NCBI RefSeq assembly: GCF_010725055.1
Contig: NZ_BJKB01000005.1
Span: 1 to 64,000, forward strand
Direction: 5' to 3'
Source of the DNA: Gelidibacter japonicus
GTDB lineage: Bacteria > Bacteroidota > Bacteroidia > Flavobacteriales > Flavobacteriaceae
DNA: 64,000 nt
Shown here: positions 5,936-46,450 of the stretch, piece by piece
Numbering within the stretch: the first letter of the stretch is position 1
Layout of the letters: each line of letters starts with the position of its first letter
Made by a program: the position numbers and the translations under genes
The notes under the pieces: generated by a model
Told to the model about the DNA's origin: nothing
What the model saw: only the letters and a program-made list of their open reading frames with translations
Databases searched by the model: none

Positions 5936-6934
5936 TTAAACATTTTTTGCCATTATAATTAGTGTAATGCCAACAATAAACAACAAAAACATCAGCGCTA
6001 TTAATTTATTTGTTCCTTTGGGTGCATCTTTAAATTCTTTCCATATAAAAATTCCCCAAATGGCGGCAACCATTGTTGCCCCTTGTCCTAAACCATATGA
6101 AATTGCAAATCCAGCTTCTCCAGCCGCTATCATATTAAATATAAAGCCTATACACCATATAGCACCTCCCAAAATTCCAATAAAATGAAGTCTAGGCGTT
6201 CCTATATTGAAATAATCTTTATATGTTACTTTACTACCACTTATGGGTTTATACATAAAGTAAGTATTGAATAAAAAGTTAGAAATAAATATTCCTATTG
6301 AAAATACAAACACCGCAGTATATGGGGTCAATAAACCTTCTGTAGGATTTGCGAAATCTGAAGACATCGATGCTGCTACAAATCTATAAAAGAAACCCAT
6401 TAAGACCCCAGCCGCTAAGGAAATCGCTATTCCTTTTGTTGTCGCCGCTCCTTTTGAAATACGCTTATATGCTAATGCATCCACAATTATTGCCAAAGCC
6501 ACCAAACCTACTCCAGTAAACAACAAGATTGGATCTCCCACAGGTATAGCTACGTAATTCACTACCACACCCAACACTAATGCAATCCCTATTCCAATTG
6601 GAAATGCAATTGCCATACCGGCGATATCTATAGCCGCAACTAATAATAAATTGGCCATATTAAAAACAATACCTCCCAATAATGCATAAAAAATTGCATT
6701 CATAGATGCATCACTTAAATTTGGTATAAATGCTTGCCCACTATCACCACTACTTCCCATAGTTAAACCAAAAACAAGAGATATTAGAATCACTCCCAAT
6801 GTATAATCCCAATAAAAAAGCGGAAAACCCCACTTTTTGGAAGCTAACTTTTGTGTATTGGCCCAAGAGCCCCAACACAACATTGTAATTACGCATAAGA
6901 AAACGGCTAAAGAATAATTGTCTATTACAAACAT
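5936..6934 (-). CDS. GRP-family (glucose/ribose porter) sugar transporter
   Basis: A 332-aa inner-membrane protein with about ten hydrophobic segments, a 10-TM DMT-superfamily fold of the RhaT/GRP kind. The early CWGSWANTQKL motif and the GLGQGATMVAAIWGIFIWKEF motif near residue 285 are typical of the glucose/ribose porter family. It is the last gene of the leftward ribose operon, 71 bp after the DUF4595-like gene. The likely job is import of free ribose, or another pentose released in the periplasm, for phosphorylation by the ribokinase at the head of the operon. The substrate is inferred from context. The start at 6934 places the first membrane helix properly. Confidence 0.82.
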   Translation of the reverse strand: MFVIDNYSLAVFLCVITMLCWGSWANTQKLASKKWGFPLFYWDYTLGVILISLVFGLTMGSSGDSGQAFIPNLSDASMNAIFYALLGGIVFNMANLLLVAAIDIAGMAIAFPIGIGIALVLGVVVNYVAIPVGDPILLFTGVGLVALAIIVDALAYKRISKGAATTKGIAISLAAGVLMGFFYRFVAASMSSDFANPTEGLLTPYTAVFVFSIGIFISNFLFNTYFMYKPISGSKVTYKDYFNIGTPRLHFIGILGGAIWCIGFIFNMIAAGEAGFAISYGLGQGATMVAAIWGIFIWKEFKDAPKGTNKLIALMFLLFIVGITLIIMAKNV

Positions 6935-7005
6935 GATTTATTTTTTTGGGTTATTAATATGTTATATTATCTTAATTATTATGTATGGTGCTAACTTAAT
7001 TCAAA

Positions 7006-7800
7006 CTAATCTTCATAGTAGGTATATGACCATGATTCAGAAAAATTTCCTCCACTGCCTGTGCCATTTTTTGTTTGCGTTGCTACTCGGTTTTCATCGT
7101 CAAATGTATATTCATAGCTTGCTCCATAATTGGAATCTGGATCCGATGCCAACTTTCTAACATAGTTTTTCACCAATTTTTTACTTTGTTTACCATATAA
7201 TCCACTGATAACTTTCCACTCTGAATCCACAGCATAAATCTGGTGAATCGAACTTGAATTATCACCAATTGTGTAATCAAAAACCCTATCTTCTCTTATG
7301 GTTGTACCGTCGTCTTCATACCTAATTCTATTGGTAATATTATTTTTAGTAATCTTATTTTCATATTTTAAATGATCTTCCCCATCGTAATGCTCAATGA
7401 TTTTTATTAAAAAACCTTCACTATTATATTCAAAACCTGCGTATTCAGTCCCTTCGTCATTCCATAATTCTCTGCTAATACGACCCTTATCATCAAGTTT
7501 GTAATAAGTACTATTGTTCCCTTTAGTAATTACTAAATTCTCTGCTGAATAATCAAACGTAATTATTTCTGGTTCTCCACCCTCCCATGAATTTGCAATT
7601 GTTGTTACTCTACCCTCTGAGTCATAAGTGTAAACCCAGCTTTCCGAACCCCAGTCAGCGTCAAAACTTATAGACTTAATTTTCGAATCTGGTACTATAG
7701 GATACTCTGCAGTACCTTCTATTTCCGTTGTACAAGAAGACACTAAAAATAATGTCAAGCAAATAGAAATTGCGTTTAAAAATTTAATTGAGTTTTTCAT
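7006..7800 (-). CDS. DUF4595-like lipoprotein with YD-type strand repeats
   Basis: 264 aa. The signal peptide ends in a lipobox with Cys near residue 23 (LFLVSSC), so it is a lipoprotein. The rest is a run of short beta-strand repeats of the form Y-x-Y/F-D-x-x-G-R, typical of YD/DUF4595-like proteins in Bacteroidota. It lies between the esterases and the sugar porter, 49 bp after the esterase gene. Such proteins often sit at the cell surface; a binding role for the locus substrate is inference. No catalytic motif is visible. Confidence 0.65.
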   Translation of the reverse strand: MKNSIKFLNAISICLTLFLVSSCTTEIEGTAEYPIVPDSKIKSISFDADWGSESWVYTYDSEGRVTTIANSWEGGEPEIITFDYSAENLVITKGNNSTYYKLDDKGRISRELWNDEGTEYAGFEYNSEGFLIKIIEHYDGEDHLKYENKITKNNITNRIRYEDDGTTIREDRVFDYTIGDNSSSIHQIYAVDSEWKVISGLYGKQSKKLVKNYVRKLASDPDSNYGASYEYTFDDENRVATQTKNGTGSGGNFSESWSYTYYED

Positions 7801-7849
7801 AATTTATAAGTTTTAATAATTAATAATAGCTTGTTGTTCATAGGGTACT

Positions 7850-9406
7850 TTAATAATGAATCTTTTTTTGACTAAAATCTAAAGCGGTTGGAAGCTCATT
7901 CAAAAACCAATCGATATCCCCGAAGCCTTCACTTACTCTATATTCATGATATATTTCCTTCTCTTTTAATATGATGTGAGTTAAACCGTTTGATTTATAA
8001 TTAAAGCTTTTATCGGTTGTAGATATGAAAAACCAATTAGATTTTAAGGATTTAATTTTAGGCGCGCTTAGTGCATTGAAAATTCGGATATCAATAGGGG
8101 CATCATAAACAGCACATGAGGTAAATCCTGCTGTCCTAACAGCATAGTCCAAAGCTTTTGCCCCACCCTCTTTATAACCTATTAAAGACTGAAAACGACG
8201 ACCTTCACGAATTCGATAATTTTTCTTAACATTGGATATAATAGAATCCAGAGACAACTTAGCATCTACCAAATCAATAAAAACAGAAATACTCAGTGGA
8301 AACTTGTTTTCTTTAGTTTTATCTATTACTGTTTTAGATATGATTTCCTTGGTTGAAGCATCAAATTGACCTATAAAATAAACAGCTGGGTAATAACGAA
8401 AAGAACTCTCATAACCATCTGGCAACAATATGTCAAATTCATTATTTCGTATCAAATTTGAACTTAGTATATTGACCGTAGAATCTTCAAAGATGTTATT
8501 TTTCTCATCTCCCCGATATGGTTTTTGATTGAATGCATCATCTATAAAATTAAGCCCATTTATTAGTGAGCCTCTCCAATAATCAAAAGAATGTCCACCA
8601 TTTCTTACTCTGAATTCATGATCAATATTCAACTCTCTTAGTAGGATATGTAATTCTTCATTACTTTTGCTTAGGGTTTGCTCATCATCCCCATTGTCAA
8701 TGAAAATTTTTAATTTTTTAAATTGATTTAAATTATCTTTGCTTAACAAATGAAAAGGAGAATTATCTTTATAATATTGAGTAATTCTTGCTTGACCATA
8801 TAAACCTACACCGCCAAAAAGTCTTCCCCATTGCTCATCCCATTCGTTTGGGTCTTCTGTCATATATTGATCATCTGTCCGGATTGAGATACTCAAGGGC
8901 ACACAAACTGAGAATATTTCAGGATGTTTTAACGGGAGAATTAAAGCACCAAAACCACCCATAGAAACCCCGATTGTTGCTCTACTCCTATTATCGGGTA
9001 TGGTCCTATAATTGGCGTCAATATATGGAACAAGTTCCTTCACAAACATGTCTTGATAAAGAAATTTACCGTAAAAATCATTTACATAATATGTTCGGTA
9101 ACCTTCCGGCATTACGTAAATCATTGGTTGGATCTCTTCATTCTGTACCTTTTTCTCTATAAACTGGCTCAATCTACCGTACTCTAACCAAGAGTAATGA
9201 CTATCTCCTAATCCGTGAAGAAGATATACTACGGGATAACTTTTATTGCTTTCATAATAATCTTTAGGAAGAATTATGGAATACTTAACAGACTGACTAA
9301 GAATTTCACTATCAATTGATTTTCCTTCATAAGTAAATACCATATCCTGAGTCAAACCTTTGTGAGATTGAAATAGAAAAAACAAAATTATTAGGAGATT
9401 CCTCAT
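7850..9406 (-). CDS. Exported two-domain esterase, second domain degenerate
   Basis: 518 aa with a cleavable signal peptide (no lipobox Cys), so probably periplasmic or secreted. Residues about 30-285 are an esterase-D / feruloyl-esterase-like alpha/beta hydrolase. The nucleophile elbow is GVSMGG near 145, the acid is in DNGDDE near 237, and the catalytic His is in GGHSFDYW near 268. Residues about 300-518 repeat the fold, but the elbow reads GYKEGG (Ser lost, near 418) and the His position reads EGFGDID (His lost, near 500), so this half should be inactive and may bind substrate. It is paralogous to the next gene upstream (9416-11029), 9 bp away. In this locus it could remove acyl groups from ribose-containing substrates; the ester substrate is not known. 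Confidence 0.82.
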   Translation of the reverse strand: MRNLLIILFFLFQSHKGLTQDMVFTYEGKSIDSEILSQSVKYSIILPKDYYESNKSYPVVYLLHGLGDSHYSWLEYGRLSQFIEKKVQNEEIQPMIYVMPEGYRTYYVNDFYGKFLYQDMFVKELVPYIDANYRTIPDNRSRATIGVSMGGFGALILPLKHPEIFSVCVPLSISIRTDDQYMTEDPNEWDEQWGRLFGGVGLYGQARITQYYKDNSPFHLLSKDNLNQFKKLKIFIDNGDDEQTLSKSNEELHILLRELNIDHEFRVRNGGHSFDYWRGSLINGLNFIDDAFNQKPYRGDEKNNIFEDSTVNILSSNLIRNNEFDILLPDGYESSFRYYPAVYFIGQFDASTKEIISKTVIDKTKENKFPLSISVFIDLVDAKLSLDSIISNVKKNYRIREGRRFQSLIGYKEGGAKALDYAVRTAGFTSCAVYDAPIDIRIFNALSAPKIKSLKSNWFFISTTDKSFNYKSNGLTHIILKEKEIYHEYRVSEGFGDIDWFLNELPTALDFSQKKIHY

Positions 9407-9415
9407 GAAGTTTGA

Positions 9416-11029
9416 TTATAATTTTTTATTAATAACAGAAAGTGAGTTACTTAAACCGTTTAGAAATGATTGATATCCATCAATCCCTTGTCTTACTCTA
9501 TATTCATACTCAATGTTTTGCTCCCTTATCGACAAATAGATATTATGGTAGCCCTTATATTGATCACTCTTGTCAACAATATCAAGATAGTAGAAAACGT
9601 TAACAGTTGGCACCACATTCTTGCCTGTTAACTTAGCACCAAACAAAAAACATGAATTAAAAAAAGAAGGTTCAACATTTACAAATTGAGCCGCCATAAG
9701 TCCTCCTTTCGAATTTCCTATGATTACCCTATTTTCTTTGTTTGGTAGTGTTCTATAATTAGTGTCCATATAGCTAATTATTTCATCTATTTTATTCGGG
9801 TTGAGATCTTTAGTTAAAAGGATATCCACAATGATTGAAGATGGAATTATTTTGTCATTCATTGCATTATTAAGTATGGACAAGGTGCTTAATTGATCTT
9901 CAGAGGATTGATCATCAATGTCATGAATCAAATACAAAACAGGAAACTGAGAAGTATTGGAAACATCGTACTCTTTGTTCTTTAATACTTTTAAGGTAAC
10001 GCCAGAAACCGTTTGAATTTCATAGTCGGTTTTTTTAATCGTCTTCCCTATTACCACGGGCTCAGGCTCATCATTATATTCTATTTCTTGAAATGCATTG
10101 CTAATAAATTTTAGAGCCTCAGGATAAGATTCTTTCCAATAATCAAACGAATGACCTCCATTTCTCACTCTATATTCATGCGAAATATTCAAATCTTTTA
10201 ATAAAGTGTGCAACTTATCGTTCGTAACAGAAAGAGACACCTCGTCATCTCCGCAATCAATCAGTAATTTTAAATTAGAAAAATTACTTGTAGCTTGATC
10301 TTTAAAAAAATGAAAAGGACTGTATTGTTTAAAATGATCTGTGATTCTATTTTGTCCGTTCGCTCCAATTCCACCAAAAATGGGACTCCATTGATAATCA
10401 TAAACCCCTTGAGGCTCTTCAATATATTGACCGTCTGTTCTAAATGACATACTTAAAGGAACCCCAATTGAAAACACACGCGGGTTTAGGGCCGGTAGAA
10501 TTAATGCTCCATACCCCCCCATAGAATACCCCATTACTGCTCTGCTTTTACTATCACGTTTCGTCCTATATATTTTATCTATTTCTGGCACCATTTCTGT
10601 TGTAAGCATATTCATAAAAGGATATCTTCCATCATACCGATTAACATAATATGTATTGTATGCCCTTGGGATAACAAAGATCATTGAGGTAATCTCATCT
10701 TTGAATCGGTCAGAATAATATTGTATCATACCATCATAATACCAAGCTTTTTCATCATTCCCGTAGCCATGTAATAAATATACTACAGGATAATCATCCT
10801 TCGATTTATCATATCCATCAGGTAATAAAACAGCGTATTGGAAATCCTCTCCTAACGCATTACTATAAAATTTCTGATTAGTAATAAGTCTTGAGAACGG
10901 TATTTCATCATCCTTAGGGAATGGGTTCTGTTCAGAAACAAAATCGTTGGTACAGCTAACCAAGAGTATGGGTAGTGCAAAGAACCACAACGATTTATAA
11001 AAACCATTTATTAGATTAAGGACGAACAT
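9416..11029 (-). CDS. Two-domain esterase lipoprotein, second domain degenerate
   Basis: 537 aa with a lipobox (ILLVSC, Cys about residue 26), so membrane-anchored. The N-terminal esterase domain has GYSMGG near residue 166, DCGDDE near 260 and GGHSFDYW near 291, a complete Ser-Asp-His triad. The C-terminal domain keeps an elbow Ser (GNSKGG near 438), but the His motif is replaced (RVRQGIDG near 515), so it is probably non-catalytic. It is a paralogue of the 518-aa esterase immediately downstream, and the two look like a tandem gene duplication of a protein that already held an internal domain duplication. It is separated by 23 bp from the last ADP-ribosylglycohydrolase gene, consistent with one operon. 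Confidence 0.82.
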   Translation of the reverse strand: MFVLNLINGFYKSLWFFALPILLVSCTNDFVSEQNPFPKDDEIPFSRLITNQKFYSNALGEDFQYAVLLPDGYDKSKDDYPVVYLLHGYGNDEKAWYYDGMIQYYSDRFKDEITSMIFVIPRAYNTYYVNRYDGRYPFMNMLTTEMVPEIDKIYRTKRDSKSRAVMGYSMGGYGALILPALNPRVFSIGVPLSMSFRTDGQYIEEPQGVYDYQWSPIFGGIGANGQNRITDHFKQYSPFHFFKDQATSNFSNLKLLIDCGDDEVSLSVTNDKLHTLLKDLNISHEYRVRNGGHSFDYWKESYPEALKFISNAFQEIEYNDEPEPVVIGKTIKKTDYEIQTVSGVTLKVLKNKEYDVSNTSQFPVLYLIHDIDDQSSEDQLSTLSILNNAMNDKIIPSSIIVDILLTKDLNPNKIDEIISYMDTNYRTLPNKENRVIIGNSKGGLMAAQFVNVEPSFFNSCFLFGAKLTGKNVVPTVNVFYYLDIVDKSDQYKGYHNIYLSIREQNIEYEYRVRQGIDGYQSFLNGLSNSLSVINKKL

Positions 11030-11052
11030 CGTAATTCGGATTTAATATCTTA

Positions 11053-12621
11053 TTAAATACTTGGAGTGTCAGCGTAGATCACAATTGATTTCATATAAAT
11101 ACTGAAATCAGCGTTTTTATTTACCCATTTAATTCCTACGTGATGGTCCTTATTATCTAATAAATACTTATGAAAAATATCATATTTTCGGACGATATAA
11201 TCATAGGGCATCTTTACTTGCTCTACTTTTTCGCCGTCAATATAAACATCCAAAAGTGCGACATAATCACTTGATGGTACACTACAAATACTGTTTACAT
11301 TTCCTAAAACCACAATACCATTCCCAGTGAAATCTATATTAATATCTTCGGTTGTATAATGTTCTCTTAGATAACGTTCTTCAGAAGGATAAAGCCCAGT
11401 GAAGGACTCTTCAAATCTAACCGTTTCTGGTTTTTGTATTTTTATTTTTATTGTTTCCCCGTCAATTTCCCCTCCATTTTGCTCAATCAACTGCAGACTA
11501 TGTTTATAGGTTAAAGCGTAAACATCATTTAAAGTTATATCCATATATGGAAAGTTTATGTCCTCCACTTCCTCTAATGCTGGCTTCCAATAATCTGGTA
11601 TAGCATCGTAACCAAACATTACACCTAAAATCCCAGCAGCTGTTGCTGGGTTACAATCTGAATCCTGTCCACATCTAGTCGCGATATCCATTGTCTTAAA
11701 AAAATCTTTTTCGCCATATAACAACCCGACAACAACATATGCTGCATTTAACCTTGCGTCTATATTGAACGAATTAAAGACCCCCTCTGGACATCCTTTC
11801 TCCGATGTATGTTTTTTTTCTATTTCAAACCAAGTTTGTTTCCAATCATCAGGATATTGTTTGTGCCATTGAATAACATCTGCTATAGTTTTATAAAAAA
11901 GACTTTCTTTTGGTATTGTACTTAACGCCTCTGCAATTACGTAATCAAGATCATCATTCACATAAGCCAGTGTGTACATAGCAGAAACAAAAACACCACC
12001 ATACCAACCATCTCCATAGTTCATAATATGACCAATTTCATCACAATATTTGGATGCGGTATTAGTCATGCCAGGCGCCATCATACCAGCAAAATCAGCC
12101 TCAATTTGAAAATCGATATCATCGGCATGTGGATTGTTCATCCAATGACCAGAGGCAGGAGGCATTATTCCATTTAATATATTATACCGTGCCGCTTGGT
12201 TAGCATGCCATAATTTATAGTCTTCGTTCGCAAATTCTATAGCAAATGAATCTATCGGTGCATTTAACCCCACCTTTTCTAAAATATTGACAAAAGTAAG
12301 GTCGAGATATACATCGTCATATAGTCCCGGGTCTGCTTCAAAAGTTTCCTTTATGTAATGGTCATGCCAGATTATTTTTTGATAGTCCTGTATCATAGTC
12401 CCCTTAAAGCGAAATTCTGTTGGACCACCAAACGTTACCCCAATAGTCTGTCCAGCCCAACCTCCTCTTATTTTATCTTTCAATTCTTTTTTTGAAAAGA
12501 TTTTAAATGTCTCAATAGGAATGGTATTATTTGCTGTTTGAGAATTTAGTTTAGCACAACTATATATCAAAACGCCGAAAATAAAGGAGAGAAAAAAATA
12601 TTTTAAAAATCTAAATTTCAT
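11053..12621 (-). CDS. ADP-ribosylglycohydrolase-family lipoprotein (third of three)
   Basis: 522 aa with a lipobox at Cys22 (LIYSC). The ADP-ribosylglycohydrolase (ARH/DraG) fold spans about residues 45-400. It has GGWAGQTIGV near 54, an acidic metal-binding motif DDVYLD near 104 and the second metal motif GQDSDCNPAT near 320, as expected for the two-Mg centre that hydrolyses ADP-ribosyl bonds. A C-terminal beta-sandwich of about 110 residues (FTGNGIVVLGN onwards) resembles small carbohydrate-binding or CE2 N-terminal-type modules. Known ARH enzymes mostly act in the cytoplasm, so an exported anchored form suggests nutrient scavenging. The true substrate (ADP-ribose conjugate, NAD-derived or another riboside) is not shown by sequence. 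Confidence 0.85.
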   Translation of the reverse strand: MKFRFLKYFFLSFIFGVLIYSCAKLNSQTANNTIPIETFKIFSKKELKDKIRGGWAGQTIGVTFGGPTEFRFKGTMIQDYQKIIWHDHYIKETFEADPGLYDDVYLDLTFVNILEKVGLNAPIDSFAIEFANEDYKLWHANQAARYNILNGIMPPASGHWMNNPHADDIDFQIEADFAGMMAPGMTNTASKYCDEIGHIMNYGDGWYGGVFVSAMYTLAYVNDDLDYVIAEALSTIPKESLFYKTIADVIQWHKQYPDDWKQTWFEIEKKHTSEKGCPEGVFNSFNIDARLNAAYVVVGLLYGEKDFFKTMDIATRCGQDSDCNPATAAGILGVMFGYDAIPDYWKPALEEVEDINFPYMDITLNDVYALTYKHSLQLIEQNGGEIDGETIKIKIQKPETVRFEESFTGLYPSEERYLREHYTTEDINIDFTGNGIVVLGNVNSICSVPSSDYVALLDVYIDGEKVEQVKMPYDYIVRKYDIFHKYLLDNKDHHVGIKWVNKNADFSIYMKSIVIYADTPSI

Positions 12622-12633
12622 AATATTATTGGT

Positions 12634-14298
12634 TTATATGGGCAAATTGCTCACTGGTTTATTTTTTGAGAATACAATTAAATCATTAATTCTGTATTCA
12701 TACTCAGATTTATGGTTTATCCACTTTAATCTCAAAGTATGTTTTCCTTCTGGAAGATTATATTTCCACGCGGGCTCCAATCTTCGTGCTGAATTCATCA
12801 TTGGTAATTTTACAGTTTCTTCAAGTTCACCATCTATATAAACTTCCATTATTGCAACATAAGGATCATCGGGCTCTGCCAATCCAAATGACTCAGAACC
12901 ATAAGTTCGTTTGGAAACTCTATCTACATATTCCACGTCAACTTTAGACCGTTTTACCATATTACCATAAAGCAGAAATCCATTACCCGTAAATTCAAAA
13001 TTTATCTCATCTGTAAAAGACTCATCTATTTTATTTCTCTCTATCGGATGAGTATTTTCAAAATTCTGTTCAAAGGCTACAGCAATTGGTTCCATTAAAG
13101 GAATTGTCAATTGGTTTTGTTCTACTGTACCTCCTTCACCCTCTATAATTTGCAATGCATGCTTCATACTCAAGTCATAGGCTTTACTTAAGGACATATC
13201 TGTGTTCTCAAAATTATCATTTTCAATTTCCTGAAGCGGTTTCAACCAAAAATCTGGAATATCATTATAACCTACCATCACTCCTAAAACACCACCAACT
13301 GTTGCAGGGTTACAATCAGCATCTTGCCCACAACGAGTAGCAATATCTATCGACTTAGAAAAATCCGCATCACCATACAACAAACCAATGGTTACATATG
13401 CGGAATTTATTTTTGCATCTATATTGAAACCTAAGAAAATACCTTTTGGACAACCAACAGGTTTGTTCCATTTTTTTTGTAGCTCAAACCAAGTTTGTTT
13501 CCAATCATTTGGATATTCTTTTTTCCATTTTATAACATCATCTATGCACTCGCGAAACTTAGTCCCCTCAGGAATAGTTTTAATGGCATTTTCTACAATC
13601 ATTGTTGGATCATTAAAAATAAAAGCAGATGAATATAATGCCGACACATAGACACCGCCATACCACCCATCACCACTATTCATTACATGACCGACTCGAT
13701 CCGCAATTTCTGTGGCCTTATTAATCATTCCAGGGGCCATTAAACCAATAAAATCGGCTTCGATTTGAAAATCAAGGTCATCTGCATGTGGATTATTTTT
13801 CCAATTGCCGGATTCTGGTGGCAAAATCCCATTTAAAATATTGTAACGTGAAGCTTGATTTGCATGGGCTAAATGGTACGCAGTATTTGACCAATGTTCT
13901 GCGATGGATTTAGAACTCGCATTCATCCCATATTTTTCAAATGCACTTACAAAATTTAAATCTGTATAGATGTCATCAAAAAGTCCTGGTTTTTTATCCC
14001 ACCAATATTTTACATAATGATCATTCCATGGTATGTTTTGATACTCATCGATTAGGGAGCCATTATATTTAAACTCCACAGGAGCTCCATAAACAACCCC
14101 TATAGTTTGTCCTGCCCATCCTCCTTTAATTTTATTTTGTAAATCCTCTTTTGAAATTACTAGTGATTCTTTTTGAATTGGCGAATTTGAATTAATATTA
14201 CTGTCTGATGTTTTCGGTGTTTTATCACTACACGATAGAACTCCAAATACTAAGACAACAATTAATCCTTTTAAAAAACTCTGATTTTTTAAATTCAT
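12634..14298 (-). CDS. ADP-ribosylglycohydrolase-family lipoprotein (second of three)
   Basis: 554 aa with a lipobox at Cys23 (GVLSC). It is closely similar to the 522-aa neighbour: GGWAGQTIGV near residue 58, DDIYTD near 105, GQDADCNPAT near 325, and a C-terminal beta-sandwich ending in a G-KHTLRLKWINH stretch. This copy has a longer insertion in the C-terminal module (around residues 455-480). It lies 2 bp after the 670-aa ARH gene and 12 bp before the 522-aa one, so tight co-transcription is likely. The two similar lipoproteins look like a tandem duplication; the 670-aa ARH is more distant. Substrate unknown; see the locus-level finding. Confidence 0.85.
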   Translation of the reverse strand: MNLKNQSFLKGLIVVLVFGVLSCSDKTPKTSDSNINSNSPIQKESLVISKEDLQNKIKGGWAGQTIGVVYGAPVEFKYNGSLIDEYQNIPWNDHYVKYWWDKKPGLFDDIYTDLNFVSAFEKYGMNASSKSIAEHWSNTAYHLAHANQASRYNILNGILPPESGNWKNNPHADDLDFQIEADFIGLMAPGMINKATEIADRVGHVMNSGDGWYGGVYVSALYSSAFIFNDPTMIVENAIKTIPEGTKFRECIDDVIKWKKEYPNDWKQTWFELQKKWNKPVGCPKGIFLGFNIDAKINSAYVTIGLLYGDADFSKSIDIATRCGQDADCNPATVGGVLGVMVGYNDIPDFWLKPLQEIENDNFENTDMSLSKAYDLSMKHALQIIEGEGGTVEQNQLTIPLMEPIAVAFEQNFENTHPIERNKIDESFTDEINFEFTGNGFLLYGNMVKRSKVDVEYVDRVSKRTYGSESFGLAEPDDPYVAIMEVYIDGELEETVKLPMMNSARRLEPAWKYNLPEGKHTLRLKWINHKSEYEYRINDLIVFSKNKPVSNLPI

Positions 14299-14300
14299 AT

Positions 14301-16313
14301 CTAATTTTGTTTTTGGGAATTATGAACACTTAGTTCGCTTATTGATGTGAAACTCGATACATTTTTAGTGTATTTATGCCAATGATCTTGGACAGCAGCA
14401 TCTCCGATAATTCGGATTGCATTAGTCGACACAGGTTGAAAAGTCAGAATATAATCTGCAAAATGAGGTTGAAAAAAAACAACATCGGTTTTTGGTAAAT
14501 TTGGTTCTATACTTTGATTTTCAACCGCGACCCATTTACCCTCATTGTTTTTGTACTGGACATTTAAAGATGTAAACCACCCTCCAAACTCTTCCATTCC
14601 TCCTGTGGAAAAGACCATCATATCAATAGTTTGAGGCTTATTCCATTCATAACCATAGTAATCAACTTTAGGTATTTTTGCTTTAGCGGCAATACTATAA
14701 AAAACCGAATTAGGACCATTGAAAATACCGTCATTAATTATAGTTGGTGATTTAGAATAAATAGAATTGCCAAAAGTTGTCCAACAAGAATCTAAAACTG
14801 AATCATTCAAAATATTAACATTGGTGATTATGGAATCAGCATTCAAAGCAAGATTTTCGTTCTTTACCAATAAATCAAATGTTTTTGATAAAAAGGTTTT
14901 ATCATTGTCAAGTTGTAATTTAATAGGAAACACTCCAAATGATTTTGGAACACCTTGGAGCCTTCCCTTATCGAAAGTAGTACCTGGAGGAAGATCCCCT
15001 CCAATCAATGACCAATTATAATCCTTATTTGCATTACTATAGAATGTAAAATCTACAGGTTGATTAATTTCCATTTTCACAGGGGGACCTAGATAAAATT
15101 CTATAGGAGCTTCAAATTGCGCACTGATATTTATATCAACAGTTTTAATATTATTCATTACATATACTCTACCTCCTTTTTCTTCAATAAGCTTTATAGC
15201 TATAGCTAAGGTTCTGTCTATTAAATCATCGATACTAGCGTCTGGCAATTCATGGCGAGTAATATTTATATAAGTATCGTTAAATGCTTTAGTCCACCCC
15301 TCTATTGGTAAGTACAAGTCTTTAGGCAATGATTTAAATCCGGAAGTAACGCCTAACAAACCTGCCAAGGTTGCTGCTTGATTATCCGCATCAAACCCCA
15401 TTGCACAAGATAAATCCAAAGTATTTTGAAAATCTCCTTCTCCATAGAGCATTGCTAAAATTCCGCAGGCTCCATTTAAATTAGCATTCCAAATTGTTTT
15501 GGTTAGATTAGGTTCATTGATATAATACTTTTGAGCCATTTCTTTCCATGCATCTTGCCACTTTGGATGTTTCTTGTGAAGTGCAATCATATCGCGAACA
15601 GTTTGTGCGTATCTACCGTCGTTGGGTAATGCACTTAAACCAATTTCAATTAATTTATTAATGTCTTTTTCAAAAAAAGCTGCTGCATACATAGCACCAT
15701 AATGTATAGTAGGTTCTGTACCCCAATCATCACTAGTAACACGAGCAGCCCAATCAGATTTTTGAGCGGCATAATCAACCATTCCTGGAGCTGTATAAGC
15801 CCATATTTCATTTATTAGTTGAGGGTCAATTTGAAACCAATGTGGGTTAATTTCTTTCTTACCCGTAAAAGGAGGGGTATAACCATAATGCATCAACCCG
15901 AGCGTTGCGCGATTCGCCAACCAAACACGATCTCTGATATGAAACATCCATGCCTCTCTCATTTGCTCATAGGTTGGTTCCACACCATATTTCTCCATAG
16001 TCAATAGATACATATACTCAACATCTGTATCGTCATCAGAAAATGCACCATTATATTGTCTAAGCTTATCAATGTTTTTCATATAGCCATAGGGCCAATT
16101 TTCCTCTCCAGGGGCATCTATATATTTATTCTCATGTGGTAAACCATATATATTGCCGATCATCTGACCTATCCACGCTCCAGCTATTTTATCTCTTAGC
16201 TCATTAACAGTTATAGTTTTATATTTTTTTAACTGAGGTTCAATTTTCTTAATACTATCGGCATTAATAAATAGTAGAGAGGAAATAAGACATATTAACA
16301 ATTCCTTCTTCAT
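14301..16313 (-). CDS. Exported ADP-ribosylglycohydrolase with Ig-like and discoidin-like modules
   Basis: 670 aa with a signal peptide but no lipobox Cys, so periplasmic or secreted. The ARH domain covers about residues 35-390: AGAWIGQMIGNIYG near 45, DDDTDVEY near 92 and GFDADNQAATLAG near 310 carry the metal-ligand acids. Residues about 400-480 contain a putative Ig-like (He_PIG) module (the W-x-L-x-GGDLPPG motif). Residues about 485-665 look like an F5/8 type C (discoidin/CBM32-like) domain. Attached binding modules argue for a bulky or polymeric extracellular substrate. The gene starts 2 bp after susD, linking it directly to the outer-membrane uptake pair. Confidence 0.83.
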   Translation of the reverse strand: MKKELLICLISSLLFINADSIKKIEPQLKKYKTITVNELRDKIAGAWIGQMIGNIYGLPHENKYIDAPGEENWPYGYMKNIDKLRQYNGAFSDDDTDVEYMYLLTMEKYGVEPTYEQMREAWMFHIRDRVWLANRATLGLMHYGYTPPFTGKKEINPHWFQIDPQLINEIWAYTAPGMVDYAAQKSDWAARVTSDDWGTEPTIHYGAMYAAAFFEKDINKLIEIGLSALPNDGRYAQTVRDMIALHKKHPKWQDAWKEMAQKYYINEPNLTKTIWNANLNGACGILAMLYGEGDFQNTLDLSCAMGFDADNQAATLAGLLGVTSGFKSLPKDLYLPIEGWTKAFNDTYINITRHELPDASIDDLIDRTLAIAIKLIEEKGGRVYVMNNIKTVDINISAQFEAPIEFYLGPPVKMEINQPVDFTFYSNANKDYNWSLIGGDLPPGTTFDKGRLQGVPKSFGVFPIKLQLDNDKTFLSKTFDLLVKNENLALNADSIITNVNILNDSVLDSCWTTFGNSIYSKSPTIINDGIFNGPNSVFYSIAAKAKIPKVDYYGYEWNKPQTIDMMVFSTGGMEEFGGWFTSLNVQYKNNEGKWVAVENQSIEPNLPKTDVVFFQPHFADYILTFQPVSTNAIRIIGDAAVQDHWHKYTKNVSSFTSISELSVHNSQKQN

Positions 16314-16315
16314 TA

Positions 16316-17824: not shown

Positions 17825-17843
17825 AATAGTTTTATTTTAATAA

Positions 17844-20786: not shown

Positions 20787-20818
20787 ATTCTTTGGTTTTT
20801 ATTAGTTAGTTTAAATTA

Positions 20819-21730: not shown

Positions 21731-21782
21731 AAATTATTTTATTATCACAATGAATGTATTGTTTAATTTAAAACTGAAATGA

Positions 21783-21812
21783 CAAATTTTTTATAAAAAA
21801 CACAAGGTCAAA
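21783..21812 (-). promoter_or_regulatory. Candidate promoter for the ribose operon
   Basis: On the minus strand a TTTG (21812-21809) is followed after 18 bp by AAAATTTG (21790-21783), close to the Bacteroidota TTTG / TAnnTTTG pattern though the TA is missing. It would start transcription about 45-50 bases before ribokinase. A perfect 12-bp palindrome AATCAATTGATT lies just upstream at 21830-21841 and could be an activator site. Confidence 0.35.
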
Positions 21813-21942
21813 TCATCACTTGGATTAACAATCAATTGATTATTATGGCTTTAATAGTATTTATTTTAATTGTTTTTATATTTATAAATAACTTTTTATA
21901 TAGTATTTTAAATCAATAATTAAGTAAATGATAAAACAAAAT

Positions 21943-23514: not shown

Positions 23515-23523
23515 TCTTCATAG

Positions 23524-24738
23524 TTATTTACATGTCCAATTTTCATCTAACCTACCTAATTCAATTGCATGTTTAATTATATGTTTTGCTTTTTCAACTA
23601 CCGGAACGTCAATCATTTTAGTCCCCAACGAAATAACGCCCAATCCTTTTTCAATCGCCAAATTATATGCGACAATAATCGATTTAGCTTCTTCAATTTC
23701 ATCATCAGAAGGCGCGAAATATCTTCTAATAATCTCAATCTGTCTCGGATGAATACATCCCATGCCTTCAAAGCCTAAAGACTTGGATGCAAGTACATTT
23801 TCCTTTAACCCCTCCAAATCTTCTACATCACTAAAAACTGAGTCTATAGGCTGAATTCCAAAGGCTTTACATGTTGTAATAATTTGTGACCTTGCAAAAA
23901 GTGATTCTATACCTAAATGGGTTCTACTTACGCCCAGATCAGCTGTTAAATCTTCCAATCCAATAGCAATTGCAACGATCGTATTTGAAGACTTAGCTAT
24001 TTCTACAATGTTTAAAACACCTTTAGCGCTTTCAATTATTGGCATTAACCAAACGGGATTGATTGTTTTTGATTTTTTCTGAATCATTTCTATATGACCT
24101 ACAATTGTTTTGATCTGAACTTCATTTTCACACTTAGGAATTAATATAACATTTACATTATGAGGAATTAAATATGGCAAATCCTTTAACCCTTCTGGAA
24201 ATTGATTTATCCTAACCATTCTTTCTGCACCTAAAAAATTCAAACTTCTAAGAGCATTTCTCACTAAAAAACGTGCTTCATGCTTCTTTAAATATGCCAC
24301 AGAATCTTCTAAATCCAAGATGACACCGTCAGGCTGATGAATTCCAGAATTAATCATTAGGCTAGGTGTATTACCAGGCAAATACAACCTTGTAATTCGA
24401 TTCCGCTTTTTATTGGTTATCAACGTGTTCTCAGTAATCAGCTCTTGTAAAAACTCCTTATCTGAAGCTTTCGATTGCTTTATAACAGACTCAAGCCTAG
24501 CTGCTATAACAAAATCTAAAGCGCCACTATCTTCGATATCTAGTACCGCATGTTTTACTTCAAAATAATCAAGAATCTTAAGACATAATAACCTTATATG
24601 TTCGCCATAAATCGATTCAACCTTGCTAGACAAGGTCAGTTTTATGCCTCCTTCAGTCTTTAATTCAAAAGTCATAAAACAATCAGATCTCACTTTTTCA
24701 CCTCTATTTCCAGCAGAAAACCTATTGATTTCTTCCAT
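23524..24738 (-). CDS. citE: Citrate lyase acyl-carrier (CitD) - lyase beta subunit (CitE) fusion
   Basis: 404 aa. Residues about 1-90 match the acyl-carrier gamma subunit CitD (FSAGNRGEKVRSDCFMTF, then YGEHIR and the DSGALDFVIAARLE end). Residues about 105-400 are the HpcH/HpaI-type CitE barrel (RRNRITRLYLPGNTPSLM-like start, GVILDLEDSV near 140, MPIIESAKGVLN near 225, GMGCIHPRQI near 345). CitE cleaves citryl-ACP to oxaloacetate and acetyl-ACP. The two are usually separate genes; the fusion is notable. The classical prosthetic-group Ser of CitD lies in an E-S-x-D context, whereas here the motif is V-R-S-D, so Ser18 is the likely attachment residue. Confidence 0.85.
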   Translation of the reverse strand: MEEINRFSAGNRGEKVRSDCFMTFELKTEGGIKLTLSSKVESIYGEHIRLLCLKILDYFEVKHAVLDIEDSGALDFVIAARLESVIKQSKASDKEFLQELITENTLITNKKRNRITRLYLPGNTPSLMINSGIHQPDGVILDLEDSVAYLKKHEARFLVRNALRSLNFLGAERMVRINQFPEGLKDLPYLIPHNVNVILIPKCENEVQIKTIVGHIEMIQKKSKTINPVWLMPIIESAKGVLNIVEIAKSSNTIVAIAIGLEDLTADLGVSRTHLGIESLFARSQIITTCKAFGIQPIDSVFSDVEDLEGLKENVLASKSLGFEGMGCIHPRQIEIIRRYFAPSDDEIEEAKSIIVAYNLAIEKGLGVISLGTKMIDVPVVEKAKHIIKHAIELGRLDENWTCK

Positions 24739-24756
24739 AATAATATGATTAATGTT

Positions 24757-26262
24757 TTACACTTGCGATGCCCAAGTAGGCAATTCCAATTCAATACCAA
24801 GCCATGGAATAATCACAAAATAAAATACCAATGGCAGCATTAACAAAATAATTAAATTTAACCAAAAACCACACTTTATCATCTCTGGAACTGAGACTCG
24901 ATTACTTGCAAAAACTACAGTATTTGGTCCAGTAGCGGCTGGCATCATAAAGGCACATGAACAAACTACCGTTGCCGGAATCATAAAAAGTAATGGATTC
25001 ATATTTGCTGCTAGAGCTGTACTTGCCAAAATAGGAAGAAGAATGTTAGCACTAGCGGTATTAGAATTAAACTCTGTAAAAGTCAAAACAAAAGCTATAA
25101 CAACAATAAGAATGGTAAAAAAGGAAAAATTACTAACAAAATTGAGCTGACCACCCAACCAATTTGCTAAGCCAGTAGCATCAAATCCATTAGCAACAGC
25201 ATAACCACCACCTACAATGATAACCACACCCCAAGGAACCTGTTTGGCTTCTTCCCAATTTAATAACTTTCTATCTTTATTTGCGGGAACAATAAACAGC
25301 AATATCGCCGAAGCCATTGCAATAGTCCCATCATGTACTCGGTCGGAAATTCCTAAAATTTCAGTCCAACCATAAACATGAAATTCTCCTATATAAATTG
25401 CATCTTTAAATACCCAAGCAAAGACAGTTAAGACAGCGATATACAAAACTCGTTTTTCCCCTGACTTGATGTGACCTAAATCTATTAACTCTTCCCTAAC
25501 AACATTTAAATTATCACTTAATTTGCCCTTTATTTTAAAGTATTTTATAATAAACAGCCAAAAAATCGGTAAAAAGATGAAGACTACTGGAACGCCAATT
25601 TTCAACCATTTAAAGAAATTGAATGTCGGAGCTTCGGGGAAAAGCTTTTCAAATATTCCTATAAAAATCATATTGGTTGGAGAACCTATTAAGGTGGCAA
25701 GCCCTCCTATGGATGCCGAATAAGCAATGGACAGCATCAAGGCAGGTGCGAAATCGTTTTTGCCGCCAGTTATATTTTCGTCCTTCTCAATAATTGACAG
25801 ACCTATGGGCAACATCATTAACGCCGTTGTAATATTAGCTATCCACATTGATACAAATGCCGTAGCAACCATCATACTTAATATTATCCTCGAACGGCTG
25901 GTACCGAAGAAAGTGAGTATTTTTAATGCTATCCTTTTATGTAAGTTCTGAACTTCTATAGCTTTAGCTAAGAAAAAGATTGCCAAAAACATGAGAACAT
26001 AGTTGTGTCCGTAATTTGAAGAAGTTTCTGAGGGTGAAAGAATATTAAAAAATGGAAACAAAACAAGTGGAACAAATGCAGTCACATAAACGGGTACAGC
26101 TTCTGTAATCCACCAAACACTCATGAGCACAACTACAGCTGCAGTCCCTTTTGCTTCATAGCTCATACCTTCTGGCGTTGGCAAAAGTTGAATAATAATA
26201 AAAAGTGAAAAACCGAGAACTATTCCAATATTTTTTTTCAAAGCGCCTATATTTATTCTCAA
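24757..26262 (-). CDS. SLC13/DASS-family di- or tricarboxylate transporter
   Basis: 501 aa with about 11-13 membrane segments. Family motifs are WWITEAVPVYVTAFVPL near residue 50, ANITTALMMLPIG near 145, ATLIGSPTN near 190 (substrate/Na binding SNT-like loop) and FNSNTASANILLPI near 400. It probably co-transports citrate or a related carboxylate with Na+. It heads the leftward citrate operon, 18 bp before the CitD-CitE gene, which supports citrate as substrate. It is divergent from the 509-aa helical protein across 148 bp. Confidence 0.87.
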   Translation of the reverse strand: MRINIGALKKNIGIVLGFSLFIIIQLLPTPEGMSYEAKGTAAVVVLMSVWWITEAVPVYVTAFVPLVLFPFFNILSPSETSSNYGHNYVLMFLAIFFLAKAIEVQNLHKRIALKILTFFGTSRSRIILSMMVATAFVSMWIANITTALMMLPIGLSIIEKDENITGGKNDFAPALMLSIAYSASIGGLATLIGSPTNMIFIGIFEKLFPEAPTFNFFKWLKIGVPVVFIFLPIFWLFIIKYFKIKGKLSDNLNVVREELIDLGHIKSGEKRVLYIAVLTVFAWVFKDAIYIGEFHVYGWTEILGISDRVHDGTIAMASAILLFIVPANKDRKLLNWEEAKQVPWGVVIIVGGGYAVANGFDATGLANWLGGQLNFVSNFSFFTILIVVIAFVLTFTEFNSNTASANILLPILASTALAANMNPLLFMIPATVVCSCAFMMPAATGPNTVVFASNRVSVPEMIKCGFWLNLIILLMLPLVFYFVIIPWLGIELELPTWASQV

Positions 26263-26410
26263 ATTTATCAGAATTAAATTACCATATTCATCAAAAAATT
26301 AACTAATTTCATATACTCAAAATCATTCTTTAATTTCTAAAGAACTATATACCAGCACTTTGCAAGGTAAATGCGATTAAAATATTATATATCTAAAATA
26401 AATTTTCGAA

Positions 26411-27940
26411 ATGACGAAATCAGAATCATTAATTTATCTTATAAACTCATTAACAAAAGCTGAAAAAAAATCAATAAGTAGTTCTTTGTTATACTCAACA
26501 TCGAACTTTGAGAAACTATATCATATCATCCTTAATAAAAAAAATAGTACCTCTGATTCAGTTAGAAAGGATTATAATATGATTTGTAAAGGGACTTCAT
26601 TTGAAACTTCAGTAATTTATCTTCATAATTTTTTACTCAATGCCATCTTAGATTTGAGAAAAAATCAAGATCTGAATTTCTTATTATTTGATAATATTTC
26701 CAAGGCGCGAATATTATTTGAAAAATCTCTTTATAAAGAATGTTTTAAACTATTAAAAAAGACCAAAAACCTGGCTTTAAAACACGAATATCAATACGCT
26801 TTTCTTTTATCATCTCGTCTTGAATTAGATTATCTCCTCTCTTTAAACTATCCTGAAATAGACGAAAACACATTACTTAAAAAACAATTTAAACTGAACG
26901 AAGCGTTACTGACTATTCAAAAAGCAAATCAACTTTCATCTTTATTAGAACTGTTGAAACATAGATCTGTTTATGTAGGAAACGCTAGAACAGAATTACA
27001 AAAAAATAAGCTCAATGATCTAGTCATGAGTGAAATGAGTATCATCAATTCATTTACTAAAGAAAATGTAGAAATTGATAAGTTACATCAACTTTTTCAG
27101 GCAAATTATTTAATTGATGTAGGAGATTTTAAATCGGCTCAACGATCATTTTACGAACTAAATTCGTTAATGGAGAAAAATAAACATTTATGGTCTGAGC
27201 CTCCAATTTATTATTTATTTACCTTAGAAGGAATTTTAGACACCTTGAGATTCCAGCGAAATTATGAAGGCATGACTTATTTTATTGAACAATTAAAAAA
27301 GCTTCAAGGGGCTCATCAATATTTTAATTTAAGAATTCAATGCACTATATTTCTTTATGAATTAATACCATTGCTTGATAATGGCGATTTTGCTTCCGGC
27401 TTAGAAAAAATGAAATTGAGTGCTAAAGATTTAATTAAAAATGAAAACCTTCTTAGTCTATCTCAAAATGCTGAACTCAAATTGCACATGTCTTTAATTT
27501 ATTTTGGTTTGGGAGAATTTAAAAAAGCTCAAAAAATTCTAAATAAAATTTTATTTGCGAGTAGAGATTACACGCAACTTCCACTTTATAGAACTATAAG
27601 ATTAGTGAATTTATTGATATTATATGAGATGAAGGATTTTGAATTTATAAAGTATGAATCTCGAACTTTAAATAGAGAAATACAAATGGCAAAAAAAAGC
27701 TATAAAATAGAAAGGGAGATTATTAAATTTGTAAATAAGCACAATCTACCATACTTAAATTCAAAACGCTCAAAACTTTGGTCTGAAAAAGAAGAAAAAT
27801 TCAAACTTATTTCTAAAGATATTTACGAGAAACAAACCTTGAAGTATTTTGATTTTCTAATCTGGATAGAAAGTAAAATCAAGAGAGTTAAATTATGCCA
27901 CTTATTATCTGCTAAAGCAAATTCCGACATAGTAAATTAA
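26411..27940 (+). CDS. Helical-repeat (TPR-like) protein, possible locus regulator (RusR-like)
   Basis: 509 aa, no signal peptide, Lys- and Leu-rich, predicted almost entirely helical with TPR-like periodicity. The N-terminus (YLINSLTKAEKKSISSSL) has the TKAEKK-type start seen in a family of Bacteroidota proteins of unknown biochemical function. There is no obvious HTH. It is divergent from the citrate/ribose genes at the island's right edge. In B. thetaiotaomicron the rus ribose locus has an adjacent regulator, RusR, without a classical one-component layout; the position and repeat character here suggest a comparable protein, but homology was not tested. Confidence applies to the gene being real; the function is inference. 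Confidence 0.7.
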   Translation: MTKSESLIYLINSLTKAEKKSISSSLLYSTSNFEKLYHIILNKKNSTSDSVRKDYNMICKGTSFETSVIYLHNFLLNAILDLRKNQDLNFLLFDNISKARILFEKSLYKECFKLLKKTKNLALKHEYQYAFLLSSRLELDYLLSLNYPEIDENTLLKKQFKLNEALLTIQKANQLSSLLELLKHRSVYVGNARTELQKNKLNDLVMSEMSIINSFTKENVEIDKLHQLFQANYLIDVGDFKSAQRSFYELNSLMEKNKHLWSEPPIYYLFTLEGILDTLRFQRNYEGMTYFIEQLKKLQGAHQYFNLRIQCTIFLYELIPLLDNGDFASGLEKMKLSAKDLIKNENLLSLSQNAELKLHMSLIYFGLGEFKKAQKILNKILFASRDYTQLPLYRTIRLVNLLILYEMKDFEFIKYESRTLNREIQMAKKSYKIEREIIKFVNKHNLPYLNSKRSKLWSEKEEKFKLISKDIYEKQTLKYFDFLIWIESKIKRVKLCHLLSAKANSDIVN

Positions 27941-32044: not shown

Positions 32045-32185
32045 AGGGTTAGGGAAATATTTCGGCAAATTATACACTTTAATTCCAGCATTCAAAATCT
32101 ATTAACAAAAGAGAACGACCGGAATCCCAGTATATGGGGTTGGTGATAAAAACAATTGAAGTAATACGGATAGGAACAGCCGTTG

Positions 32186-43673: not shown

Positions 43674-43692
43674 GATCTCCGAGATTTAGTAG

Positions 43693-44751: not shown

Positions 44752-45185
44752 TAATTTTCTATTTGATGGATCTCATCCATAATCGATTGAGGAATTGCAA
44801 TTTTTTGTTGTTTGTTATAATCGACAATTACAACTTCGTGTGTTTGTATTGCAACCAATCGGTTTTGCTGGTTACTGAAAAAGTAAGATTTTAACACAAA
44901 TCGATCGTCTTTAATGGCATCGGTCTTTGTTCCAATAATAATGGTATCCGGATACACCACAGGAGCAATATACTTTACCGATTGAAACCCTAAGATTGGT
45001 GCATAGAGCATCTTTTTAGGATCCTGATTTATAATAAAACCCATAGCTCTAAAATAATCCACTCGAGCGGTTTCTCCCCAACGTACATAATTTACATTAT
45101 TCACATGTTGGTAGGCATCCATCTCCCCCCATTGCACAACAATAGTGGTTTGAATTTTAAAATCTGCTATAGTCACTTCCCGCAT
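44751..45185 (-). CDS. Acyl-CoA thioesterase (4HBT hotdog fold)
   Basis: 144 aa, the size of single-hotdog thioesterases of the YbgC/4HBT type. The N-terminal VVQWGEMDAYQHVNNVNYVRW motif carries the catalytic Asp. It should release free acids from acyl-CoA. Both ends overlap neighbours by one base (TAATG junctions at 45185 and 44751), showing tight coupling with the acyl-CoA dehydrogenase and CoA-transferase genes. Confidence 0.88.
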   Translation of the reverse strand: MREVTIADFKIQTTIVVQWGEMDAYQHVNNVNYVRWGETARVDYFRAMGFIINQDPKKMLYAPILGFQSVKYIAPVVYPDTIIIGTKTDAIKDDRFVLKSYFFSNQQNRLVAIQTHEVVIVDYNKQQKIAIPQSIMDEIHQIEN

Positions 45186-46390: not shown

Positions 46391-46450
46391 GGCTACTTTA
46401 TTTAGTTATTCATTGATGTACGATAAAGAATCAAGACCGCTTCGCTTATA

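What the first reader, a model, noticed from the sequence alone, without database searches (positions are those of the whole stretch)
5936..27940. Expanded rus-like ribose/ADP-riboside scavenging locus
Seen: ribokinase, SusC, SusD, three exported ADP-ribosylglycohydrolase-family proteins, two double esterases, a DUF4595-like lipoprotein and a GRP sugar porter, in one direction with mostly 2-70 bp gaps. Known: the B. thetaiotaomicron rus locus for ribose scavenging combines SusCD-like proteins, ribokinases, an ADP-ribosylglycohydrolase, a nucleoside hydrolase and a transporter. Inference: this is a distinct variant without a visible nucleoside hydrolase, built around three exported ARHs plus esterases, which suggests acylated or ADP-ribose-like extracellular substrates (O-acyl ribosides, ADP-ribosylated macromolecules, NAD breakdown products).
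Basis: partly seen in the sequence, partly recalled or inferred. Interest (0 to 1): 0.8.

Follow-up and report, generated by a model that had tools for sequence, protein, structure and literature searches.

The report
Ribose-ester locus with citrate arm
A gene set shared by many Bacteroidota seems built to take up an acid-decorated ribose compound, cut off the ribose and, in a number of relatives, also use a citrate-like acid; what the compound is remains unknown, so the locus points to an unrecognised nutrient.

Summary
In detail: ribokinase, SusC, SusD, three exported ADP-ribosylglycohydrolase-family (ARH) proteins, two CE1-like esterases, a lipoprotein and a GRP-like porter lie on one strand with 2-71 bp gaps. 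It is no chance cluster: 38 of 80 fetched relatives carry the set, 26 with all eight core genes in the same order, most others cut by contig ends; the three ARHs are separate conserved lineages. The rus comparison is fair, but no nucleoside hydrolase was found in the 38 loci, and each 'double esterase' has one intact catalytic domain.

Not in the finding: a citrate arm in the same interval (DASS transporter, CitD-CitE fusion, CitF). It lies at the locus in the window and 10 of 32 relatives, in three arrangements, and a CitMHS citrate symporter stands in for DASS in some. CitG and CitX are missing in 22 of 24 genomes, and Arg replaces the prosthetic-group Ser in 23 of 23 fusions. Genome-level co-occurrence is not significant inside one family (p 0.52), so a chemical link of citrate and ribose is inferred. 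Best reading: scavenging of acylated ribosides, possibly citrate esters.

The parts
5936..6934 (-). GRP-like inner-membrane sugar porter (predicted ribose uptake)
   Evidence: PF07168 74.7 bits (cut-off 27), PF06800 26.4 (26.3); TIGR00776 31.2, far under its cut-off 319.6; also beside RbsK/ARH1 in rus-type loci
7006..7800 (-). Lipoprotein LP, unknown; possibly surface substrate binding
   Evidence: No Pfam family over cut-off; relative in 29 of 38 full-type loci
7850..9406 (-). EstB, predicted exported CE1-like esterase; N domain Ser148-Asp240-His272, C domain degenerate
   Evidence: PF00756 131.9 bits; residues invariant in 19 of 19
9416..11029 (-). EstA, predicted exported CE1-like esterase; N domain Ser169-Asp261-His293, C domain degenerate
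   Evidence: PF00756 106.8 bits; profile match to ferulic acid esterase 7xrt 215.4 bits; 17 of 17
11053..12621 (-). ARH1, predicted exported ribosidase; Asp102, Asp103, Asp320, Asp322; lineage nearest to rus-type rows
   Evidence: PF03747, alignment A2, tree
12634..14298 (-). ARH2, predicted exported ribosidase; Asp108, Asp109, Asp326, Asp328; its clade holds only full-type rows
   Evidence: PF03747, alignment A3, tree
14301..16313 (-). ARH3, predicted exported ribosidase with about 340-residue C-terminal extension; Asp93-95, Asp97, Asp308, Asp310
   Evidence: PF03747 98.7 bits on residues 45-332, alignment A1
16316..17824 (-). SusD-like surface lipoprotein
   Evidence: PF07980 98 bits
17844..20786 (-). 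SusC-like TonB-dependent outer-membrane transporter
   Evidence: PF07715, PF00593, PF13715
20819..21730 (-). Ribokinase RbsK
   Evidence: TIGR02152 351.2 bits (cut-off 299.65); E. coli-type ribokinase 1gqt 240.7 bits
21943..23514 (-). CitF-like citrate lyase alpha subunit
   Evidence: PF04223 447.2 bits; TIGR01584 490.7, just under cut-off 501.45; 38% identical to E. coli CitF over 483 positions
23524..24738 (-). CitD-CitE fusion with Arg at the column of the prosthetic-group Ser
   Evidence: PF06857 + PF03328; GNxGxxxRSD in 23 of 23 distinct full-length fusions; alignment with E. coli CitD
24757..26262 (-). DASS (SLC13) di/tricarboxylate transporter
   Evidence: TIGR00785 264.3 bits (cut-off 198.6)
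26411..27940 (+). Divergent TPR-like protein, candidate regulator of the locus
   Evidence: Relatives divergently upstream in full-type and several rus-type loci; only weak TPR matches, no HTH family

Best explanation
A SusCD-type catabolic locus for an acylated ribosyl (probably ribofuranosyl) glycan or conjugate. SusC/SusD import the substrate; exported CE1-like esterases EstA and EstB remove acyl groups; ARH1, ARH2 and ARH3, three non-redundant metal-dependent ARH-family ribosidases, release ribose from different linkages; the GRP-like porter carries ribose in and RbsK makes ribose 5-phosphate. In a number of lineages, the window's included, the acid is used too: DASS (or CitMHS) imports a citrate-like acid, CitF loads it and the CitD-CitE fusion splits it to acetate and an oxo acid (oxaloacetate from citrate), probably as free CoA thioesters because the prosthetic-group machinery is missing. 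The divergent TPR-like protein is a candidate regulator. Shown by sequence: gene content, order, conservation, families, catalytic residues, absence of the maturation genes. Inferred: enzyme activities, export, sugar and acid identity, and that acid and ribose come from one molecule.
For: Ribose: RbsK over its equivalog cut-off, closest solved chain a ribokinase; ARH1 lies beside RbsK and often a GRP porter in minimal loci too. Conserved set: of 38 full-type loci (out of 80) 26 hold RbsK, SusC, SusD, ARH3, ARH2, ARH1, EstA and EstB in this order; 9 are cut by the end of the stretch, L050 has ARH1 missed by my ORF caller, L076 and L077 lack EstA. Three ARH lineages, each on one side of one branch (SH-aLRT 99, 97, 100; 18 rows each), metal Asp invariant in 25, 19 and 27 rows. 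Esterases: triad intact in one domain each, EstA profile nearest to a ferulic acid esterase. Acid arm: CitF beside the ribose locus in the window and 10 of 32 relatives (L030-L035, L041, L043, L057, L082) in three arrangements; CitMHS over its cut-off in L036 and L082 (543.8, 538.9 vs 259.7 bits), L038's being 84% identical to L082's, in place of DASS in L036 and L038. Transporter at the locus against CitF in the genome: 23 both, 1 CitF only, 1 transporter only, 5 neither (p 2.4e-4); leaving out L054, L059 and L065, where one side is not in view, 23, 0, 1, 3 (p 1.4e-3); neither corrected for kinship. CoA-type lyase: CitG 2 of 24, CitX 2 of 24, CitC 3 of 24 genomes (one a 55-position match), the full ones beside a second, canonical cit cluster.
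Against: Inside the family of G304 (16 genomes) CitDE and ARH3 are not associated: both 9, CitDE only 4, ARH3 only 1, neither 2 (p 0.52), so the contrast 24 of 32 full-type genomes with CitF against 4 of 394 other genomes of the class with CitDE is inflated by kinship. In 14 of 24 CitF-bearing full-type genomes CitF lies elsewhere, with CitDE in 13 of them and without it in one (L142), and no ribose gene in the stretches held; the pair also occurs in genomes without the full ARH3 (L174-L177). 8 of 32 full-type genomes lack CitF over the cut-off. ARH3-lineage genes occur without ribokinase or GRP porter in the stretches L159-L163, so that lineage need not mean ribose. No ribose-citrate ester turned up in searches (listings only) and I recall none. 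The Ser next to the Arg is conserved in the CitD domain, so another attachment site is not excluded. 212 bp separate CitF from RbsK, so the arms may be separate transcripts. No structure could be predicted and there are no activity data.
Confidence: 0.5

Rival explanations
1. The ribose genes alone are one system for generic acylated (acetyl, feruloyl or similar) ribosides; the citrate genes are a separate nutrient module that shares the neighbourhood and perhaps the regulator, with no chemical link.
For: CitDE-CitF away from ribose genes in many genomes; no association inside one family; 212-bp gap between CitF and RbsK; CE1 esterases are best known on acetyl and hydroxycinnamoyl esters (recalled; 7xrt match).
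Against: CitF beside the locus in the window and 10 of 32 relatives, on either side of it; a citrate-type transporter at the locus in 24 of 30 genomes as far as the held flanks show, and exchange of DASS for CitMHS at the same place.
Confidence: 0.3
2. One reading: scavenging of ADP-ribose, NAD breakdown products or ADP-ribosylated macromolecules by three ADP-ribosyl hydrolases.
For: PF03747 family with conserved metal Asp residues; ribokinase and porter.
Against: No phosphatase, nudix or nucleotidase family returned for the locus proteins; no nucleoside hydrolase found in the 38 loci; Tyr/Phe before the Asp pair in ARH1/ARH2; ADP-ribosylarginine hydrolase and DraG equivalog cut-offs not met (18.2-19.5 bits vs 490 and 337); esterases and citrate genes unexplained.
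Confidence: 0.1
3. The acid is not citrate but a relative such as citramalate or 3-hydroxy-3-methylglutarate, which would explain why an aerobe needs a C-C lyase instead of feeding the acid to the TCA cycle.
For: The window's CitE part scores below the citE cut-off (243.7 vs 443.4) and also matches RipC (151.2 vs 375); missing maturation genes; the closest solved chain is CLYBL 5vxc (a citramalyl-CoA lyase, recalled), then a malyl-CoA lyase.
Against: CitMHS relatives well over a citrate-symporter cut-off at the same place; CitF of L113, L141 and L082 over the citF cut-off (535.4, 504.2, 531.6 vs 501.45); the canonical CitE of L152 also fails the citE cut-off (318 vs 443.4).
Confidence: 0.15

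Closest known systems
B. thetaiotaomicron rus locus (BT2804 and following genes; ribose utilization)
   Same: Ribokinase, SusC-like, SusD-like, sugar porter; ARH1 lineage and TPR-like protein have relatives in rus-type loci of other species. A passage of PMC10434189 lists ribokinase, TonB receptor, SusD, DUF4969, nucleoside hydrolase and a DMT permease there; the original rus paper was not held, its content is recalled, and the B. thetaiotaomicron DNA itself was not compared.
   Different: No nucleoside hydrolase; three ARH lineages; two CE1-like esterases; frequent citrate-type transporter and lyase.
Citrate lyase CitDEF(CXG), E. coli type
   Same: CitF, CitE and CitD homologues; CitF 38% identical to E. 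coli.
   Different: CitD fused to CitE; Arg at the attachment-Ser column in 23 of 23; CitG and CitX missing in 22 of 24 genomes, the other two having a second canonical cluster.
PF03747 ADP-ribosylglycohydrolases (Tri1, DraG, ARH)
   Same: Family and metal Asp residues; the DxD block of ARH1 aligns with Tri1 6dre.
   Different: Predicted exported; Y/F-D-D and DxDC/S in ARH1/2, SDDDTD and DxDN in ARH3; far below Tri1 and DraG equivalog cut-offs.
CE1 feruloyl/acetyl esterases
   Same: PF00756 family and triad; 7xrt ferulic acid esterase 215.4 bits for the EstA profile.
   Different: Second, degenerate hydrolase-like domain; acyl specificity unknown.

Membership tests
rus (ribose utilization) locus | Ribokinase plus SusC/SusD plus sugar porter in one locus | tested here: met
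rus (ribose utilization) locus | Nucleoside hydrolase in the locus | tested here: not met
   None returned for the window locus; none in the 38 full-type loci by BLAST with the L064 protein
rus (ribose utilization) locus | ARH of the rus-type lineage | tested here: met
   ARH1 lies nearest to rus-type rows; ARH2 and ARH3 are separate clades
rus (ribose utilization) locus | Induction by ribose/nucleosides | not testable with these tools
   Needs transcriptomics
PF03747 ADP-ribosylglycohydrolase | Family score and metal-binding Asp residues | tested here: met
PF03747 ADP-ribosylglycohydrolase | ADP-ribosyl hydrolase equivalogs (Tri1, DraG) | tested here: not met
   18.2-19.5 bits for ARH1 and ARH2 vs cut-offs 490 and 337; no match for ARH3
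Canonical citrate lyase | CitF, CitE, CitD homologues | tested here: met
   Pfam, E. coli CitF 38%; the window proteins lie under the NCBIfam equivalog cut-offs, CitF of L113, L141, L082 over it
Canonical citrate lyase | Ser carrying the phosphoribosyl-dephospho-CoA group (site recalled) | tested here: not met
   Arg at that column in 23 of 23 fused proteins; Ser kept in E. coli and in canonical copies of L152, L155; neighbouring Ser conserved, so not decisive
Canonical citrate lyase | CitC, CitX, CitG in the genome | tested here: not met
   Own genome none; among 24 genomes CitG 2, CitX 2, CitC 3
CE1 esterase | PF00756 with Ser-Asp-His | tested here: met
   N domains only
PUL (SusCD locus) | SusC/SusD pair with exported hydrolases in one operon-like array | tested here: met
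   export judged by hydrophobicity and lipobox pattern only; transcription not tested

The most novel reading that the evidence does not exclude
The locus degrades an undescribed natural product or polymer in which ribofuranose is esterified with citrate (or a close tricarboxylate); both halves are eaten, the acid by a citrate lyase that has given up its special prosthetic group and works on free CoA thioesters.
Probability: 0.25. Interest if true: 0.85.

Novelty: new variant of a known kind. Interest (0 to 1): 0.6.

Why it matters
An ordered set of three ARH-family enzymes, two CE1-like esterases and a ribokinase kept in Flavobacteriaceae, Chitinophagaceae, Cyclobacteriaceae, Flammeovirgaceae and Bacteroidales implies a ribose-bearing substrate met by many Bacteroidota that I could not find named. 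If confirmed it would add exported ribosidases to a family known for protein de-ADP-ribosylation, and the fused citrate lyase without maturation genes is a testable biochemical oddity by itself.

Tried and rejected
Literature: searches were seen as listings only and showed no description of this locus, of ARH enzymes as ribofuranosidases, or of a ribose-citrate ester (one search listed one MALDI review, not read); passages were read in PMC10434189 and PMC5219744 (ATP citrate lyase only, not informative). Promoters: the Bacteroidota-type pattern (recalled) gave 3 matches in the window, 3.36 expected, none at the locus; sigma-70-type scans of two stretches were near shuffle level. Solved structures: ARH3 had no match, ARH1 only a weak Tri1 match.

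Considered and rejected: that the triple ARH is a recent tandem duplication (three separate clades); that 'double esterase' means four active sites; that genome co-occurrence proves the citrate link (searches do not bear it out inside one family). A first Fisher table used a wrong count (22,1,1,7); the corrected table (23,1,1,5) is, with L060 and L063 left out because their contigs end at the locus, and a stricter one (23,0,1,3) also leaves out L054, L059 and L065. One search left out two truncated CitDE rows (L120, L127) and duplicates by their last 60 residues. The tree used 17 of 38 full-type loci plus the window, and a chosen part of the other loci. The 38 full-type loci were picked by eye. 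One search was given 32 of the 38 full-type loci (L039, L040, L042, L048, L049, L058 left out) and 8 others; L030 and L075 were not held, so 31 + the window and 7 were searched.
Full report
Observation. Pfam and NCBIfam agree on ribokinase, SusC, SusD, three PF03747 proteins, two PF00756 esterases and a GRP-like porter. The same interval also holds a DASS transporter, a CitD-CitE fusion, CitF and a divergent TPR-like protein, which the finding does not mention.

More than chance. 38 of them (L030-L063, L065, L076, L077, L082) I call full-type. 26 of these hold RbsK, SusC, SusD, ARH3, ARH2, ARH1, EstA and EstB in this order; of the other 12, nine are cut by the end of the stretch, L050 has ARH1 missed by my ORF caller, and L076 and L077 lack EstA. 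Porter and lipoprotein follow in either order, but in L065 the porter follows RbsK. Named carriers include Gelidibacter, a Lutibacter MAG, Ferruginibacter, Cyclobacteriaceae, Flammeovirgaceae, Paludibacter MAGs and many Bacteroidales MAGs. The set is rare overall: ARH3 at E <= 1e-100 is in 1 of 395 genomes of the class, the window's own, and in 3 of 299 of the window's family (window, G047, G183), of which G183 has other neighbours (L159). Two other genomes of the window's genus have no match at E <= 1e-20.

The ARHs. ARH1, ARH2 and ARH3 of full-type loci each fall on one side of one branch (18 rows each). ARH1 and ARH2 lie in the part of the tree with most rus-type rows, ARH3 in a different part; profile comparison still aligns ARH3 with ARH1 over 345 columns. 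The paired Asp and DxD residues are invariant in all 27 (ARH3), 25 (ARH1) and 19 (ARH2) rows; the residue before the pair is Tyr (ARH1), Phe (ARH2) or Ser (ARH3), and the DxD is followed by Cys/Ser (ARH1, ARH2) or Asn (ARH3). With the recalled rule that Thr/Ser sits at these places in protein ADP-ribosyl hydrolases, this fits hydrolases of another riboside. No solved relative beyond a weak match to Tri1 was found. Against a simple ribose reading of ARH3: ARH3-lineage genes in L159-L163 have no ribokinase or GRP porter in the stretches held; in L161 one lies beside an EstB-like esterase, with an apiosidase-like and a nucleoside-hydrolase-like protein close by.

The esterases. EstA is CE1-like by its profile; both have one intact domain, and the second domain has lost its nucleophile in 15 of 17 EstA and 19 of 19 EstB rows.

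The citrate arm. In the window and in L031, L032, L034, L035 and L043 the order is TPR, then divergently DASS-CitDE-CitF-RbsK; L030 shows CitF before RbsK at the edge of the stretch held. In L033, L041 and L057 DASS-CitDE-CitF follows the lipoprotein; in L082 CitDE-CitF-CitMHS comes after the porter and one unrelated ORF. In many Bacteroidales only the transporter is at the locus (DASS, or CitMHS in L036 and L038) and CitF lies elsewhere. CitF over the Pfam cut-off is in 24 of 32 genomes reached through full-type loci (the window's own included) and in 0 of 7 reached through minimal or rus-type loci. CitDE was found in 5 of 395 genomes of the class, the window included. Against this, within the family of G304 the two are not associated (9, 4, 1, 2; p 0.52), and CitDE-CitF occurs without ribose genes in the stretches L174-L177. 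I therefore rest the link on physical embedding and on the exchange of transporter families, not on genome counts.

The lyase. CitC, CitX and CitG gave no match in the window's genome (99.98% complete). Among 24 CitF-bearing full-type genomes CitG and CitX occur in two (G311, G314) and CitC in these two plus a 55-position match in G310; in G311 and G314 they lie beside a second, canonical citrate lyase cluster. In the CitD domain of the fusion, the column of the E. coli attachment Ser (site recalled) is Arg in 23 of 23 distinct full-length proteins, while the canonical copies of L152 and L155 keep Ser. The fused CitD stays under the citD cut-off in the 4 proteins scored (45.6, 63.4, 52.6, 57.2 vs 63.5; one by 0.1 bit), the two canonical CitD pass (72.7, 75.8). 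The simplest reading is an enzyme on free CoA thioesters: acid + acetyl-CoA to acyl-CoA + acetate, then acyl-CoA to acetyl-CoA + oxo acid. The conserved neighbouring Ser leaves room for another attachment.

Mechanism. Outer-membrane import, deacylation by EstA/EstB, ribose release by three ARHs, GRP-type import and phosphorylation; the acid goes through DASS or CitMHS to the lyase. The sugar assignment is the firmest part, the acid assignment moderate, their union in one molecule a hypothesis.

Relation to rus. Minimal loci in Parabacteroides and relatives are RbsK-ARH1-(NH)-GRP, and a printed passage lists the B. thetaiotaomicron operon with ribokinase, TonB receptor, SusD, DUF4969, nucleoside hydrolase and permease (PMC10434189, passage). 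L066 (Parapedobacter) is intermediate: RbsK-GRP-SusC-SusD-ARH3-ARH1-NH. The window locus works like rus but fails the nucleoside-hydrolase feature, so I call it a rus-like variant, not rus.

Noticed in passing
window 23524-24738 and 21943-23514: Fused CitD-CitE plus CitF without CitC/CitX/CitG matches in the genome and with Arg at the prosthetic-group Ser column: possible CoA-dependent citrate lyase, also found away from ribose genes in Bacteroidales.
   Followed up: yes
window 4391-5425: Transposase-like ORF (DUF772 over its cut-off, DDE_Tnp_1_2 just under) downstream of the locus; in L030 a 364-aa ORF that looks like a transposase by eye also follows the porter.
   Followed up: no
L161 (G217): An ARH3-lineage gene beside an EstB-like esterase, with a second EstB-like gene, an Sde182 nucleoside-hydrolase-like and an apiosidase-like DUF5060 protein nearby: the ARH3-esterase pairing exists outside this locus.
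   Followed up: partly
L149, L154: A 591-aa protein that looks like an aconitase/LeuC-type dehydratase (by eye) lies close to CitDE-CitF.
   Followed up: no
PMC10434189 (passage): The B. thetaiotaomicron operon at BT2804 (ribokinase to permease) is listed with values of -6.4 to -4.5 in the iron-dependent stimulon; an iron link to ribose and citrate use may be worth a look.
   Followed up: no
window 41922-50252: Acyl-CoA degradation cluster: AMP-binding, family III CoA-transferase, acyl-CoA dehydrogenase, ECH/3HCDH fusion, thiolase.
   Followed up: no
window 55807-63045: Second SusC/SusD pair with a GHL10 protein; another GHL10 protein at 30296-32095.
   Followed up: no
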